Of a stretch of 64,000 bases of DNA, positions 22,570 to 26,716 are shown piece after piece; the first letter of the stretch is position 1; each line of letters starts with the position of its first letter. The position numbers were made by a program, and so were the translations under genes. The DNA is taken from assembly GCF_000716535.1 (NCBI RefSeq), contig NZ_JNWV01000027.1, positions 1 through 64,000 on the forward strand. Reading direction: 5' to 3'. Under the pieces are notes generated by a model. That model was not told where the DNA came from, searched no databases, and saw nothing but the letters and a program-made list of their open reading frames with translations. Source of the DNA: Streptomyces flaveolus. GTDB taxonomy: Bacteria; Actinomycetota; Actinomycetes; Streptomycetales; Streptomycetaceae.

Positions 22570-23391
22570 TCAGCCGCCGGTCGCCGGCAGGACGGACCCG
22601 TGGTACTTGTCCTGGATGAACGTCCGCACCTCGGGCGAGAGGAGCAGCTTCGCGAGCTTCTTCACCCGTGGGTCGTCCTCGTCGCCGCGCTTCACGGCGA
22701 GGAGGTTGGCGTAGGGGTTGTCCTTCGCCGACTCCAGGAGGACCGCGTCCCTGGTGGGGCTGAGGCCCGCGTCCTGGGCGTAGTTGTTGTTGACGACCGC
22801 GGCGTCCACGTCGTCGAGCGAGCGGGGCAGCTGCGCGGCTTCCAGCTCCCGGAACTTCAGGTGCCGGGGGTTGGACGTGACGTCCGCGGGGGACGCGTCG
22901 GTGCCGGCGCCGGCCTTCAGTCCGATGACGCCGCCCGCGGCCAGCAGCTTGAGGGCGCGGCCCTCGTTGGTGATGTCGTTCGGCACGGCGACGGTGGCTC
23001 CGTCGGCGAGCTCGGTGACCTTCTTCGCCTTGTGGGAGTAGACGCCCATGGGCGGCAGGTAGGGCTTGACCACGGGGACGAGGTCGGTGCCCTTGGACTT
23101 GTTGAAGTCGTCCAGGTAGGGCTGGTTCTGGTAGAGGTTCGCGTCCAGCTCGCCCTCCTGGAGGGCGGTGTTCGGCAGGACGTAGTCCGTGAACTCCTTG
23201 ATCTCCAGCTTCAGGCCGGCCTTGGCGGCGAGGTGGTCCTTGACGTAGGTGAGCACCTCGCCGGCCGGGACGGCGGTGGCGCCGACGACGAGGGTGTCGT
23301 CCTCGCCACCGCCCTTGCCGGAGTCCGTGCCGGAGCCGCAGGCGGTCAGGCCGAGGGCCAGGGCCGCGACGGCGATGACGGACATGCGCAT
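22570..23391 (-). CDS. metQ: Methionine ABC transporter binding lipoprotein, copy 2
   Basis: 273 aa NlpA/MetQ-family lipoprotein. It has a short signal and the lipobox LTAC (Cys18), then VVGATAVPAGEVL, the domain core IKEFTDYVLPNTALQEGELDANLYQNQPYLDDFNKSKGTDLV, IAVPND-type AVPNDITNEGRALKLL, and C-terminal SPEVRTFIQDKYHGSVLPA. It delivers methionine to MetI/MetN. It lies 20 nt downstream of a second, clearly paralogous metQ, so this is a local duplication with possibly different ligand preference (L-Met, D-Met or Met-sulfoxide). It is last in the operon, followed by a hairpin terminator. Confidence 0.92.
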   Translation of the reverse strand: MRMSVIAVAALALGLTACGSGTDSGKGGGEDDTLVVGATAVPAGEVLTYVKDHLAAKAGLKLEIKEFTDYVLPNTALQEGELDANLYQNQPYLDDFNKSKGTDLVPVVKPYLPPMGVYSHKAKKVTELADGATVAVPNDITNEGRALKLLAAGGVIGLKAGAGTDASPADVTSNPRHLKFRELEAAQLPRSLDDVDAAVVNNNYAQDAGLSPTRDAVLLESAKDNPYANLLAVKRGDEDDPRVKKLAKLLLSPEVRTFIQDKYHGSVLPATGG

Positions 23392-23411: not shown

Positions 23412-24242
23412 TCAGAAGGACGGGATGACCGAGCCCTGGTACTTGTCCTCGATGAACTTCTTGACCTCGGGCGAGGTGAGGAGCTTGGCGAGCTTCTTCA
23501 CGCGCGGGTCCTTCTCGTTGCCCTCCTTGACCGCGAGGAAGTTGCCGTACGGGCTGTTCTTCGCGGACTCCAGGACCAGGGCGTCCTGGGCGGGCTTGAT
23601 GCCGGCGGAGATGGCGTAGTTGCCGTTGATCACGGCCGCGTCCACGTCGTCCAGGGAGCGCGCGGTCTGGGCCGCCTCGACCTCCTTGAACTTGAGGTCC
23701 TTGGGGTTCTTGGTGATGTCCTGCGGGGTCGCCTCGGTGCCGACGCCGTCCTTGAGGGTGATGAGCCCGTTGGCGGCGAGCAGCTTCAGGGCGCGGGCCT
23801 CGTTGACGGCGTCGTTCGGGACGGCGATGGTCGCACCGCTCTTGAGGGCGTCGGCCTTCTTGACCTTGTGGGAGTACAGGCCGAGCGGCTCCAGGTGCAC
23901 CGTGACGACGGGCGCGATGTGGGTGCCGCGCTTCTTGTTGAAGTCGTCGAGGTACGGCTGGTTCTGGAAGTAGTTGGCGTCCACCGAACCGTCCTCGGTC
24001 GCCGTGTTCGGCGTGATGTAGTCGGTGAACTCCTTGACCTCCAGGTCGAGGCCCGCCTTCTTCGCCAGCTTGTCCTTGACGAAGTTCAGGATCTCGGCGT
24101 GCGGGGTCGGGCTCGCGGCGACGACGAGCGGGCCGCTGTAGTCGGAGGAGGCGGAGTCCTTGTCCGAGCCGCAGGCGGTGAGCCCGAAGGTGACGGCTCC
24201 GGCGGCGAGGACGGCGGTGGTGAACTTGGCGGTGTTACGCAC
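23412..24242 (-). CDS. metQ: Methionine ABC transporter binding lipoprotein, copy 1
   Basis: 276 aa NlpA/MetQ lipoprotein with lipobox LTAC (Cys24) and the same motif order as its neighbour (VKEFTDYITPNTATEDGSVDANYFQNQPYLDDFNKKRGTHI; IAVPNDAVNEARALKLL; SPEVKKFIEDKYQGSVIPSF). The pair differs mainly in the first domain and around the ligand-proximal Asn/Tyr region, so both are probably functional. GTG start with AAGGAAAGG upstream. It is third of four cistrons in metN-metI-metQ-metQ. Confidence 0.92.
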   Translation of the reverse strand: MRNTAKFTTAVLAAGAVTFGLTACGSDKDSASSDYSGPLVVAASPTPHAEILNFVKDKLAKKAGLDLEVKEFTDYITPNTATEDGSVDANYFQNQPYLDDFNKKRGTHIAPVVTVHLEPLGLYSHKVKKADALKSGATIAVPNDAVNEARALKLLAANGLITLKDGVGTEATPQDITKNPKDLKFKEVEAAQTARSLDDVDAAVINGNYAISAGIKPAQDALVLESAKNSPYGNFLAVKEGNEKDPRVKKLAKLLTSPEVKKFIEDKYQGSVIPSF

Positions 24243-24362: not shown

Positions 24363-25100
24363 TCAGGCGACCTTGCTGACGTCGGCCGCCGCCGGCTCCT
24401 GGGCCTTCAGCAGGCGGAGCTTGGGCGCCGGGCCCGACCGGCCGCCCCGGCTGTGCAGGGTGCGGGCCGCGAAGTCGCCGGCGAACTGGATGAGGGAGAT
24501 GGCGACGGCGAGGACCGCGACGGTGATCCACATGAGCTCGGTCTCGAAGCGCTGGTAGCCGTAGCGGACGGCGAGGTCGCCGAGGCCGCCGCCGCCGACG
24601 GTGCCGGCCATGGCGGAGTAGCCGATGAGGGCGATGAGCGTGGTCGTGGTGGAGGCGATCAGCGAGGGCAGGGCCTCGGGGATCAGGACCTTGCGGACGA
24701 CCGTCCAGGTGTTGCCGCCCATGGACTGCACCGCCTCGACCAGGCCGTGGTCCACTTCGCGGACGGCCGTCTCGACCAGGCGGGCGAAGAAGGGGATGCC
24801 GCCGATGGCGAGCGGCACGATCGCGGCGGTGGTGCCGATGGTCGTGCCGGTGACCCAGCGGGTGAAGCTCATCAGCGCGACCATCAGGATGATGAACGGC
24901 ATGGACCGGCCGATGTTCACGACCTGGCCGACCACCTTGTTGGCGACGACGTTCTGGACCAGGCCGCCCCGGTCGGTGACGACGAGGAGGAGGCCCAGCG
25001 GGAGGCCGGCCGCGACGGCGATCAGGGTGGACCAGAGCACCATCGTGAGCGTCTCGGAACACGCCTGGGACAGCAGCGGCTGCATCTCGGACCAGGTCAC
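24363..25100 (-). CDS. metI: Methionine ABC transporter permease
   Basis: 245 aa inner-membrane permease with about five transmembrane helices. The EAA-type coupling loop is VEAVQSMGGNTWTVVRKVLIPEALPSLIA. NIGRSMPFIILMVALMSFTRWVTGT is the typical MetI signature. Its ATG overlaps the metN stop by four nt (ATGA), indicating translational coupling. The C-terminal ~25 residues (APKLRLLKAQEPAAADVSKVA) are an extra cytosolic tail. Confidence 0.94.
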   Translation of the reverse strand: MTWSEMQPLLSQACSETLTMVLWSTLIAVAAGLPLGLLLVVTDRGGLVQNVVANKVVGQVVNIGRSMPFIILMVALMSFTRWVTGTTIGTTAAIVPLAIGGIPFFARLVETAVREVDHGLVEAVQSMGGNTWTVVRKVLIPEALPSLIASTTTTLIALIGYSAMAGTVGGGGLGDLAVRYGYQRFETELMWITVAVLAVAISLIQFAGDFAARTLHSRGGRSGPAPKLRLLKAQEPAAADVSKVA

Positions 25101-26131
25101 TTGGCACCTTCCTTCACCAGCAGGGCCTCCTGGCCCACCACGTCGATCTGCAGGCCCTGTTCGCGCAGGAAGCCGACCGGCACCACGTTGTCCTCGTAGC
25201 GGCCGGGCAGTTCGATGCGCATGCGGCCGATCTGGAGGCCGCCGACGGTGTCGATGGCGGCGCCGAGGATCGATATGTCGATGTTGTAGGTGCGCGAGAG
25301 CTGGGAGATGACGGGCTGGGTGGCGGCCTCGCCGTGGAAGGTGATGTCGAGGACGGTCCGGTCGGTGCCGGTGGCCTCGCCGCCGACGGGGAACAGCGCG
25401 GCGGCCAGCTCCGAGCCCGGGGTGGCCAGCAGCTCGCTGACCGTGCCGGACTCCACGATCCGGCCCTTCTCCATCAGGGCGGCGGAGTCGCAGATCGACT
25501 TCACCACGTCCATCTCGTGGGTGATGAGCAGGACGGTCAGGCCGAGCTGCCGGTTCAGGTCGCGCAGCAGCTGGAGGATGGAGCGGGTGGTCTCCGGGTC
25601 GAGGGCGCTGGTGGCCTCGTCGGAGAGCAGGACCTTGGGGTCGCCGGCGAGGGCGCGGGCGATGCCGACGCGCTGCTTCTGGCCGCCGGAGAGCTGGGCG
25701 GGGTAGGCCTTCGCCTTGTCGGCGAGGCCGACCAGGTCGAGCAGCTCCAGCGCCTTGCGGGAGCGGGTCCGGCCGGACTGGCCGAGGATCTCCAGCGGCA
25801 GTTCGACGTTGTCCTGCACGGTCCGCGAGGACAGCAGGTTGAAGTGCTGGAAGACCATGCCGATCCGGCTGCGGGCCCGGCGCAGTTCCCGGCCGGCGCG
25901 CGGGCCGCGCCCGGCCAGGGCGGTGAGGTCCTGCCCGGCGACGGTCACGGTGCCGGAGGTGGGGCGCTCCAGCAGGTTGACGCAGCGGATGAGCGAGGAC
26001 TTTCCGGCGCCGGACTGGCCGATGACGCCGTAGACCTCGCCTTCGCGGACGTGAAGATCGACGCCGTCGAGGGCGGTGACCTCACGGCCGCGGGAGCGGT
26101 AGACCTTGGTCAGGCCCGAGGTGGTGATCAC
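25097..26131 (-). CDS. metN: Methionine ABC transporter ATP-binding protein
   Basis: 344 aa. Walker A is GQSGAGKSS, followed by Q-loop FQHFNLLSSRTV, signature LSGGQKQRVGIARAL, Walker B VLLSDEATSALDPET and H-loop THEMD. The C-terminal NIL domain (~residues 262-340: QPVISQLSRTYNIDISILGAAID) is the methionine-sensing regulatory domain of MetN that causes trans-inhibition. The start is set at GTG 26131 (VITTSGLTKVYRS); an open extension of 40 codons upstream overlaps the leader region and is not conserved-looking. First structural gene of the operon, 164 nt after a Cys/Met-rich leader ORF. Confidence 0.93.
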   Translation of the reverse strand: MITTSGLTKVYRSRGREVTALDGVDLHVREGEVYGVIGQSGAGKSSLIRCVNLLERPTSGTVTVAGQDLTALAGRGPRAGRELRRARSRIGMVFQHFNLLSSRTVQDNVELPLEILGQSGRTRSRKALELLDLVGLADKAKAYPAQLSGGQKQRVGIARALAGDPKVLLSDEATSALDPETTRSILQLLRDLNRQLGLTVLLITHEMDVVKSICDSAALMEKGRIVESGTVSELLATPGSELAAALFPVGGEATGTDRTVLDITFHGEAATQPVISQLSRTYNIDISILGAAIDTVGGLQIGRMRIELPGRYEDNVVPVGFLREQGLQIDVVGQEALLVKEGAK

Positions 26132-26295
26132 GTGGGTTTCCGTCACTGTCGAGTGCGCGGGCGTGGGTGTGCCCGGGCACGGGTGCATGCGGTTCCGGCA
26201 TGGGGAGATGGATGTGCGTCTCGTACGGCCTACGGCGCACGGACATGCCACGGGTCTCGCTTCGGGGCGCGAGGCTCAGCTGATGCGGGGGCCCT

Positions 26296-26394
26296 CTAGA
26301 AGGCGCACATTCGACACATCAGGCGACACATACAACGAGCACCGGGCGTCAGGGTCGCCTCGGTCGCAAAGGTGCGGCAGCTCGTCGTGGTCAT
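26296..26394 (-). CDS. Putative Cys/Met leader peptide upstream of metN
   Basis: 32-codon ORF starting ATG at 26394 and ending TAG at 26296. Its second half reads RCMCRLMCRMCAF: four of its five Cys and three of its four Met lie within 10 residues just before the stop. It precedes the methionine importer operon on the same strand, where an attenuator leader peptide would be expected. Downstream hairpins include one at 26214-26240 (GTGCG/CGCAC closing CGTA/TACG) and a GTGCCCGGGCAC self-complement. No good ribosome-binding site is visible, so it may be translated leaderless. Function is inferred from composition and position only. Confidence 0.5.
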   Translation of the reverse strand: MTTTSCRTFATEATLTPGARCMCRLMCRMCAF

Positions 26395-26716
26395 GTGAGA
26401 AGTAAAGCAGACGAACGGTCCTGACCCGCCGCCTCTGTCCGCATGGTGGACAGCCGCGGACAGGGGTGACGGGATGCCCGGCCACCCTCGGTGACCTGCG
26501 CTCTCCCGCCCTTCACCAGCGCGGACAAGGCCGAGGGGGCCTCTGCACCAGGTCGGCGTCCGGCCCGGCCGCCCGGTGGGCTGTGGCCAATGCCACGGTG
26601 GTCACGCCGGCCGCGACGGGCCGGGCCACTGCCTTCCGGCACCGGGCGGGCGGGACCCCGCCGCGTACGGCGGGGGCGGCGGCGATGGGCTGTTTCCGCC
26701 GTAATAAGGTCACGGC
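26395..26716. other. Divergent promoter region, metN leader and 26.7-kb genes
   Basis: 322 bp between the leader ORF (minus) and the membrane-protein gene (plus). CTGTCCGC (26435-26442) and GCGGACAG (26456-26463) form an 8-bp inverted repeat with an internal GGACAG, ~40-70 nt upstream of the leader ORF; it could be an operator for the methionine operon. GCCGTAATAAGG (~26697-26708) precedes the plus-strand ATG. No gene is supported. Confidence 0.5.

What the first reader, a model, noticed from the sequence alone, without database searches (positions are those of the whole stretch)
26214..26394. Cys/Met-rich leader ORF in front of the methionine importer operon
A 32-codon ORF with RCMCRLMCRMC before its stop lies 164 nt upstream of metN on the same strand. 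Four of five Cys and three of four Met cluster within 10 residues. Composition, position and downstream hairpins (26214-26240) fit ribosome-mediated attenuation that senses sulfur amino acids. I know of streptomycete leader peptides for sulfur genes with other sequences, but not this one.
Basis: partly seen in the sequence, partly recalled or inferred. Interest (0 to 1): 0.72.

Follow-up and report, generated by a model that had tools for sequence, protein, structure and literature searches.

The report
Cysteine-methionine leader peptide before metNIQ
The short cysteine- and methionine-rich reading frame in front of a Streptomyces methionine-importer operon is a real leader that is kept across its bacterial family, probably to switch the importer on when sulfur amino acids run short; the leader itself was already reported in one species in 2021.

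Summary
The ORF is real: 26394-26296 (-), 32 codons, 164 nt before metN. I read its counterpart in 126 loci of the same family. It is already in print as S. lividans metL (PMC8079986), with a leaderless start from RNA-seq and unclear termination. New here is the family-wide anatomy. A TCTGNTTTACT element lies 6-7 nt before the ATG in 115 of 115 loci tested. The frame is kept through ten leader lengths. An Arg-Met pair near the stop occurs in 126 of 126, encoded CGA-ATG in 123 although CGA is 1.8% of Arg codons. Cys flanks it in 122. GAGG follows 10-12 nt later in 121, even where the stop has moved by a codon. An outer stem inside the ORF covaries, and a hairpin precedes metN. The spacer to metN is C-rich in 114 of 114, has no T run above four, and a modelled stalled ribosome does not change metN start accessibility (36 loci). 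I favour Cys/Met-sensing attenuation read out by Rho-type termination. Sensing, stalling and read-out are inferred, not shown.

The parts
26296..26394 (-). Leader ORF (metL), 32 codons plus TAG
   Evidence: frame kept in 115 of 115 loci; published homologue in S. lividans
26401..26411 (-). Promoter element TCTGCTTTACT, 6 nt before the ATG; predicted leaderless start
   Evidence: 115 of 115 loci, 101 exact; coordinates
26436..26452 (-). Palindrome TGTCCACCATGCGGACA, possible regulator site
   Evidence: form GTCCr-N3-5-yGGAC in 97 of 126 loci
26305..26313 (-). CGA-ATG-TGC (Arg-Met-Cys), proposed stall codons
   Evidence: Arg-Met 126 of 126, CGA 123 of 126; coordinates
26292..26296 (-). GAGGG, 11 nt after CGAATG
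   Evidence: GAGG at 10-12 nt in 121 of 126 loci
26380..26388 (-). 5' strand of the outer stem of a possible three-way junction
26332..26340 (-). 3' strand of the outer stem of a possible three-way junction
26365..26376 (-). Inner hairpin of the possible junction (CGCA-TGCG)
26342..26363 (-). Second inner hairpin of the possible junction (CCGAGGCG-CGCCCGG)
26256..26273 (-). Hairpin CTCGC-GCCCCGAA-GCGAG after the stop
   Evidence: 102 of 126 loci; U-A to C-G exchange in 3 of 30 genus loci
26132..26295 (-). C-rich spacer without T tract, proposed site of factor-dependent termination
   Evidence: C>G in 114 of 114 loci; longest T run 4 or less in 114 of 114; function inferred
26153..26180 (-). 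Hairpin just before the metN start region
   Evidence: window fold; one pair G-C in 91 and A-T in 16 of 114 loci
25097..26131 (-). metN, start GTG 26131
   Evidence: ABC_tran and NIL domains; start at this place in 114 of 115 loci
24363..25100 (-). metI permease
23412..24242 (-). MetQ-type lipoprotein
22570..23391 (-). Second MetQ-type lipoprotein

Best explanation
This is metL, a leaderless leader ORF that controls metNIQ by ribosome-dependent attenuation. Transcription starts at or next to the ATG, and a ribosome loads on the 5' end. When charged tRNA-Cys and/or tRNA-Met is scarce, the ribosome slows on the tail UGU-CGA-AUG-UGY; the rare CGA codon would slow it further. A ribosome held there leaves the GAGGG segment 10-12 nt downstream at its leading edge. 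This changes the fate of the C-rich, U-poor spacer, most likely by reducing Rho-type termination before metN. With enough Cys and Met the ribosome finishes and leaves, and transcription ends in the spacer. Shown by comparison: the ORF, its frame, promoter spacing, CGA-AUG motif, spacing to GAGG, C-rich spacer and metN linkage. Published: the leaderless start in S. lividans. Inferred: sensing, stalling, and the Rho read-out, which is the weakest step.
For: Promoter element TCTGNTTTACT with 6 nt (36) or 7 nt (79) before ATG in 115 of 115 loci, 101 exact; leaderless start in S. lividans. ATG-to-CGmATG distance is a multiple of 3 in 115 of 115, with ten different distances. Arg-Met in 126 of 126, CGA in 123, Cys on at least one side in 122, against CGA 1.8% and TGT 12.7% in window ORFs. 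In the 11 loci found without the model (9 by metN, 2 by promoter), Arg-Met and CGA are present in 11 of 11. CGAATG-to-GAGG spacing is 10-12 nt in 121 of 126, whereas the stop is 6 nt (18) or 9 nt (108) away. Of 19 family genomes without a model match, 9 have no TIGR02314 hit at E<=1e-80, 9 have a full metN and all 9 of these carry an analogous leader, and one has a metN fragment. Spacer C>G in 114 of 114 against 7 of 15 upstream regions in the window. Longest T run 4 or less in 114 of 114.
Against: No expression, profiling or starvation data for any locus of this study. Single Cys positions are not invariant (107 and 105 of 126), so Cys sensing alone does not explain the pattern. The invariant Arg is not predicted by simple Cys or Met starvation. 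115 of the 126 loci were found by DNA or a model that includes the tail, so its conservation there is partly selected. Local hairpins at GAGG are not clearly commoner than elsewhere in the spacer (23 of 24 against 496 of 630 control segments). C-richness only suggests Rho: 8.2% of random 216-nt window segments reach the same C minus G maximum.
Confidence: 0.6

Rival explanations
1. Same sensing, but the read-out is translational: leader RNA masks or frees the metN ribosome-binding site, as PMC13236596 describes in passing for other uORF systems (passage read).
For: A covarying hairpin sits directly before the metN start region (one pair G-C in 91, A-T in 16 of 114 loci), and the sequence TCGACAGTGACGGAA next to metN is strongly kept within the genus.
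Against: In 36 of 114 loci tested, masking a ribosome at the first Cys, the last Cys or the stop changed the mean unpaired probability of the metN start region by only +0.005, +0.017 and -0.009. The spacer is long and variable (155-359 nt).
Confidence: 0.2
2. The constrained RNA inside the ORF (a possible three-way junction) is itself a ligand-binding riboswitch, and the ORF is secondary.
For: Outer stem of 9 pairs: all 9 in 76, 8 in 15, 5-7 in 9 of the 100 loci that have the anchor. G-C to A-U exchange (52 loci of one exact GAGC/GCTC type, 17 of two exact GAAC/GTTC types) and register-shifted pairing in L009 and L013. Mean 8.62 pairs against 8.36, maximum 8.45, in 1000 shuffles with the register picked anew.
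Against: No Rfam family reaches its gathering score there and only two weak unrelated matches appear at E<=10. In 30 genus loci only 1 pair has a two-sided change, and 131 of 500 shuffles reach that, although the covariation score and the cells-paired measure exceed all 500. 15 of 115 loci lack the anchor but keep ORF and tail. Shuffles do not remove relatedness.
Confidence: 0.1
3. The peptide is a functional small protein acting in trans, not a cis leader.
For: Amino-acid tail kept over the family.
Against: One copy in the own genome; metN follows in 114 of 115 loci; the N-terminal half is replaced between genera; the spacing to a downstream RNA sequence is kept.
Confidence: 0.05

Closest known systems
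metL (SLIV_29928), Streptomyces lividans TK24, PMC8079986 (passages read)
   Same: The same leader at the same place: MSTTSDRTPATEATTTPGARCMCRRMCAF before metNIQ, leaderless start, no typical Rho-independent terminator found.
   Different: That paper describes one species, lists it as methionine-dependent and notes methionines and threonines.
Cys-rich leaderless uORFs of mycobacteria (PMC4633059, passages read; Canestrari 2020 seen only as a title in a reference list; not held)
   Same: Small ORF on a leaderless mRNA with a Cys cluster at its end, before sulfur genes.
   Different: Different sequence and target genes; the tail here always holds Arg-Met. Homology was not tested.
Cys leaders of Mycobacterium, Propionibacterium and Bifidobacterium (PMC1262725, passages read)
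   Same: Cys codons near the stop, no conserved terminator, Rho-dependent termination proposed by its authors as a possibility.
   Different: They precede cys or cbs genes. That survey reported no conserved RNA structure before methionine operons in Actinobacteria.
trp-type transcription attenuators of Streptomyces (PMC1262725, passages read)
   Same: Leader ORF with clustered control codons.
   Different: No GC-rich terminator with a U tract here.

Membership tests
Classical (trp-type) transcription attenuator | Leader ORF with clustered codons for the regulated amino acid | tested here: met
   Tail Cys/Met codons and frame conserved; translation itself not observed.
Classical (trp-type) transcription attenuator | Intrinsic terminator: GC-rich hairpin followed by a U tract before the first structural gene | tested here: not met
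   Longest T run in the spacer is 4 or less in 114 of 114 loci. The two terminator-like matches (26430-26410 and 26430-26414, -) lie upstream of the leader ATG.
Leaderless Cys-responsive attenuators (mycobacterial type) | Transcript begins at the leader start codon | tested here: inconclusive
   Sequence fits: promoter element 6-7 nt before ATG in 115 of 115. Published for S. lividans. Not measured in this genome.
Leaderless Cys-responsive attenuators (mycobacterial type) | Cys codon cluster at the 3' end of the ORF | tested here: met
   322 of 366 Cys codons of 115 leaders lie in the last 12 residues.
Leaderless Cys-responsive attenuators (mycobacterial type) | Downstream expression responds to cysteine supply | not testable with these tools
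   Needs reporters.
SAM riboswitches and Streptomyces-metH/metK RNAs of Rfam | Match to the family model | tested here: not met
   No match in this region at gathering score; at E<=10 only mraW and toga_FSE, both below gathering score.
Nascent-chain arrest peptide (TnaC/SpeFL kind, recalled) | Invariant residues near the end of the peptide | tested here: met
   Arg-Met in 126 of 126.
Nascent-chain arrest peptide (TnaC/SpeFL kind, recalled) | Ribosome arrest that depends on peptide sequence and an effector | not testable with these tools
   Needs toeprinting or profiling.

The most novel reading that the evidence does not exclude
C-R-M-C encoded UGU-CGA-AUG-UGY is a dedicated arrest site: a nascent-chain or codon-context stall that senses methionine, SAM or cysteine directly and is set at a fixed distance from a GAGG switch element, rather than plain amino-acid starvation at Cys codons.
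Probability: 0.2. Interest if true: 0.75.

Novelty: new variant of a known kind. Interest (0 to 1): 0.5.

Why it matters
If right, a whole family of antibiotic-producing bacteria gates its methionine importer with a leaderless leader that reads Cys and Met together and needs no intrinsic terminator. The nearly invariant rare-codon pair CGA-AUG at a fixed distance from GAGG gives a sharp, cheap test of what the ribosome senses. It also refines the published reading of metL as a leader with methionines and threonines, by showing which codons are kept.

Tried and rejected
Rfam scans at gathering score and at E<=10: nothing relevant. Covariation within 30 genus loci: too few changes to judge the fold. 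SD sequestration by folding with a masked ribosome: no effect in 36 of 114 loci. A local hairpin at GAGG: not clearly above control. Pairing of GAGGGC with the loop GCCCCGAA of the hairpin at 26273-26256 is possible in the 102 loci that have that hairpin (GAGGGC in 96, GAGGGT in 6), but I have no test that supports it. The upstream palindrome as a large regulon: 0-2 exact sites per genome in 41 genomes and 8 sites with up to one mismatch in the own genome; the ORFs around the one exact site of the own genome showed no evident sulfur gene by eye, the other sites were not examined. Plasmid search: no match. Structure prediction was not used: a 32-residue leader would give nothing useful.

Corrections: my first shuffle control for the outer stem (mean 8.19, maximum 8.29) did not pick the register anew; one search does (8.36, 8.45) and is the one to use. 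An earlier count said 45 of 60; the answer says 44.

Rows dropped: of 118 loci in the main set, L049 and L058 repeat L007 and L001, and L024 was lost by my own filter (it wants GCGCCCCGAAGC; L024 reads ACGCCCCGAAGC), although its leader and promoter look normal. That leaves 115. L087 has no metN start by my pattern, so spacer counts are 114. Five matching genomes (G010, G014, G027, G034, G036) were not fetched. L138 (metN fragment, G008) was left out. The nine divergent and two promoter-found loci (L127-L137) were not in the promoter, spacer or stem counts; the nine have variants such as TCTGATTTAATCG. In one search, 69 of 150 genomes had no match, 49 of them not listed by the tool and not followed. 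The starts in L129-L137 were picked by me from the ORFs printed. Species are related to each other, so k of n does not count independent events.

Full report
WHAT IS THERE. The ORF at 26394-26296 (-) encodes MTTTSCRTFATEATLTPGARCMCRLMCRMCAF. It precedes a methionine importer operon on the same strand: metN (25097-26131, ABC_tran and NIL domains), metI (24363-25100) and two NlpA-type lipoprotein genes (23412-24242 and 22570-23391). The metN match to TIGR02314 (385 bits) is below that model's curated cut-off of 499.7, so the name rests on the best hit, the NIL domain and the gene order. The metN start is GTG at 26131: GTGATCAC or a close variant stands at that place in 114 of 115 loci. That the genome is a Streptomyces is inference: S. 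lividans metL is alike, and an exact 39-nt pattern made from relative L051 is found in eight records, all titled Streptomyces; all eight carry the leader and seven have the metN start in reach, the eighth stretch ending too soon.

IS IT MORE THAN CHANCE. In the window it is the only one of 195 ORFs of 20-60 aa with 6 or more Cys+Met in ten residues. A DNA search found the region in 35 of 61 genomes: the own genome, 34 of 36 same-genus relatives and 0 of 24 others. A covariance model (R1, 30 sequences) matched 81 of 150 family genomes, in 12 of 17 genera. In 60 genomes drawn from the order it matched 44, all of the window's genus, and none of 15 genomes of two other families. In the class draw it matched 16 of 197, all of the window's genus. 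The own genome holds one copy.

PROMOTER. This spacing fits a start at the ATG; for S. lividans metL a leaderless start from RNA-seq is published. The exact promoter-plus-ATG pattern occurs in 2 of 22 genomes without a model match, and both turned out to carry a divergent leader (L127, L128). Nine further divergent leaders have promoter variants that this exact pattern misses.

CODING EVIDENCE. Ten different ATG-to-CGmATG distances occur and all 115 are multiples of three. The tail is the conserved part. In 126 leaders (115, plus nine found through metN and two through the promoter) the last Arg-Met pair is present in all; its Arg is CGA in 123; Cys precedes it in 107, follows it in 105, and does one or the other in 122. 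Because DNA or model searches that include the tail found the 115, the 11 others are the cleaner sample: Arg-Met and CGA in 11 of 11. CGA is 1.8% of Arg codons in 43 window ORFs and 7 of 387 other Arg codons in the leaders. TGT is 228 of 366 Cys codons in the 115 against 12.7% in the window ORFs. The N-terminal half is replaced in divergent genera, for example MFTTAHTSGTAATATGCRRMCRSCQICRMCGC.

GEOMETRY. After CGAATG, GAGG follows 10 nt (72), 11 nt (42) or 12 nt (7) later, 121 of 126; the other five have GAAGG, GAGC or GAAGC there. The stop codon is 9 nt away in 108 and 6 nt in 18, and in the 16 of those 18 with a scored GAGG it is still at 10-12 nt. So the distance from codons to the downstream RNA is kept while the stop moves. 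I read this as the mark of a ribosome held on the tail; that step is inference.

RNA STRUCTURE. In 100 of 115 loci the first part of the ORF has the anchor of a possible three-way junction with outer stem ACGACGAGC/GCTCGTTGT (window 26388-26380 with 26340-26332). Taking the better of two registers, 76 of the 100 form all 9 pairs, 15 form 8, and 9 form 5-7. The stem changes on both sides between groups (GAGC/GCTC against GAAC/GTTC); L009 and L013 pair one codon over, with a two-sided change between them. Mean pairs are 8.62 against 8.36, maximum 8.45, in 1000 shuffles of the 3' strands; relatedness is not removed by that control. Within the genus the fold hardly varies, and the window sequence folds only moderately better than shuffles (z -2.17 for 142 nt, -1.61 for 275 nt). 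A hairpin CTCGC-GCCCCGAA-GCGAG (26273-26256) is present in 102 of 126, with U-A to C-G exchange in three of 30 genus loci. A hairpin GTGC..GCAC lies just before the metN start region (26180-26153); one of its pairs is G-C in 91 and A-T in 16 of 114 loci. The list also holds many high-scoring pairs that cannot all be helices, so I use it only where pairs form a helix by eye.

READ-OUT. No T run longer than 4 lies between leader and metN in 114 of 114 loci, and the terminator scan of the window stretch finds none there (its two matches lie in the promoter region). Masking a ribosome at three positions does not change predicted accessibility of the metN start in 36 of 114 loci. The spacer, without its last 45 nt, is C-rich: C 46%, G 29%, C>G in 114 of 114, against 7 of 15 upstream regions of the window, a set that includes the gap before metN itself. 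This favours factor-dependent termination but is circumstantial: 8.2% of random 216-nt segments of the window reach the same C minus G maximum. A hairpin at GAGG, which I had hoped would be the switch, is not clearly commoner than in control segments (23 of 24 against 496 of 630).

LINK TO metN. Of 22 genomes searched, 19 are family members without a model match and three are from other families. Of the 19, nine have no TIGR02314 match at E<=1e-80, nine have a full metN and all nine carry an analogous Cys/Met leader, and one has a metN fragment. None of the three others has a match at that threshold; a weaker metN is not excluded. So leader and importer go together in what I examined.

WHAT IS KNOWN. 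metL of S. lividans is in Table 4 of PMC8079986 with a leaderless start; the authors note methionines and threonines and say termination is unclear (passages read). Two narrow searches of an open-paper library return only that paper. Broader ones gave longer, mostly capped lists, of which I opened four papers in all (PMC1262725, PMC8079986, PMC4633059, PMC13236596; passages only, plus the outline of the first), so other mentions are not excluded. PMC1262725 reported no conserved RNA element before methionine operons in Actinobacteria. Cys-rich uORFs on leaderless mRNAs in mycobacteria are described in PMC4633059; the later paper that tests them is known to me only by its title in a reference list and is not held.

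VERDICT. The leader is not new. The conserved CGA-AUG pair flanked by Cys, its fixed distance to GAGG, and the lack of any intrinsic terminator make it a distinct variant of leader-peptide control.

Noticed in passing
26436-26452 (-): A palindrome (TGTCCACCATGCGGACA here) lies upstream of the leader promoter: GTCCr-N3-5-yGGAC in 97 of 126 loci (0.16% of shuffles), centred near -50 (65 loci) or near -60 (30 loci) from the ATG, about one helical turn apart, as for an activator site. Its regulator is unknown.
   Followed up: partly
22570-23391 and 23412-24242 (-): Two successive NlpA/MetQ-type lipoprotein genes follow metI, so the operon appears to have two binding proteins.
   Followed up: no
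26138-26152 (-): TCGACAGTGACGGAA before metN is kept at nucleotide level within the genus although it falls in different frames relative to metN in different species.
   Followed up: no
26305-26334 (-); also L057, L098, L128, L134: The leader tail grows and shrinks by whole codons through near-copies of Cys/Met/Arg units, so it seems prone to in-frame repeat expansion.
   Followed up: no
L028 (genome G002, contig C196) and G002 contig C185: Two places with an equally good match to the leader region in one draft genome; may be an assembly duplicate.
   Followed up: no
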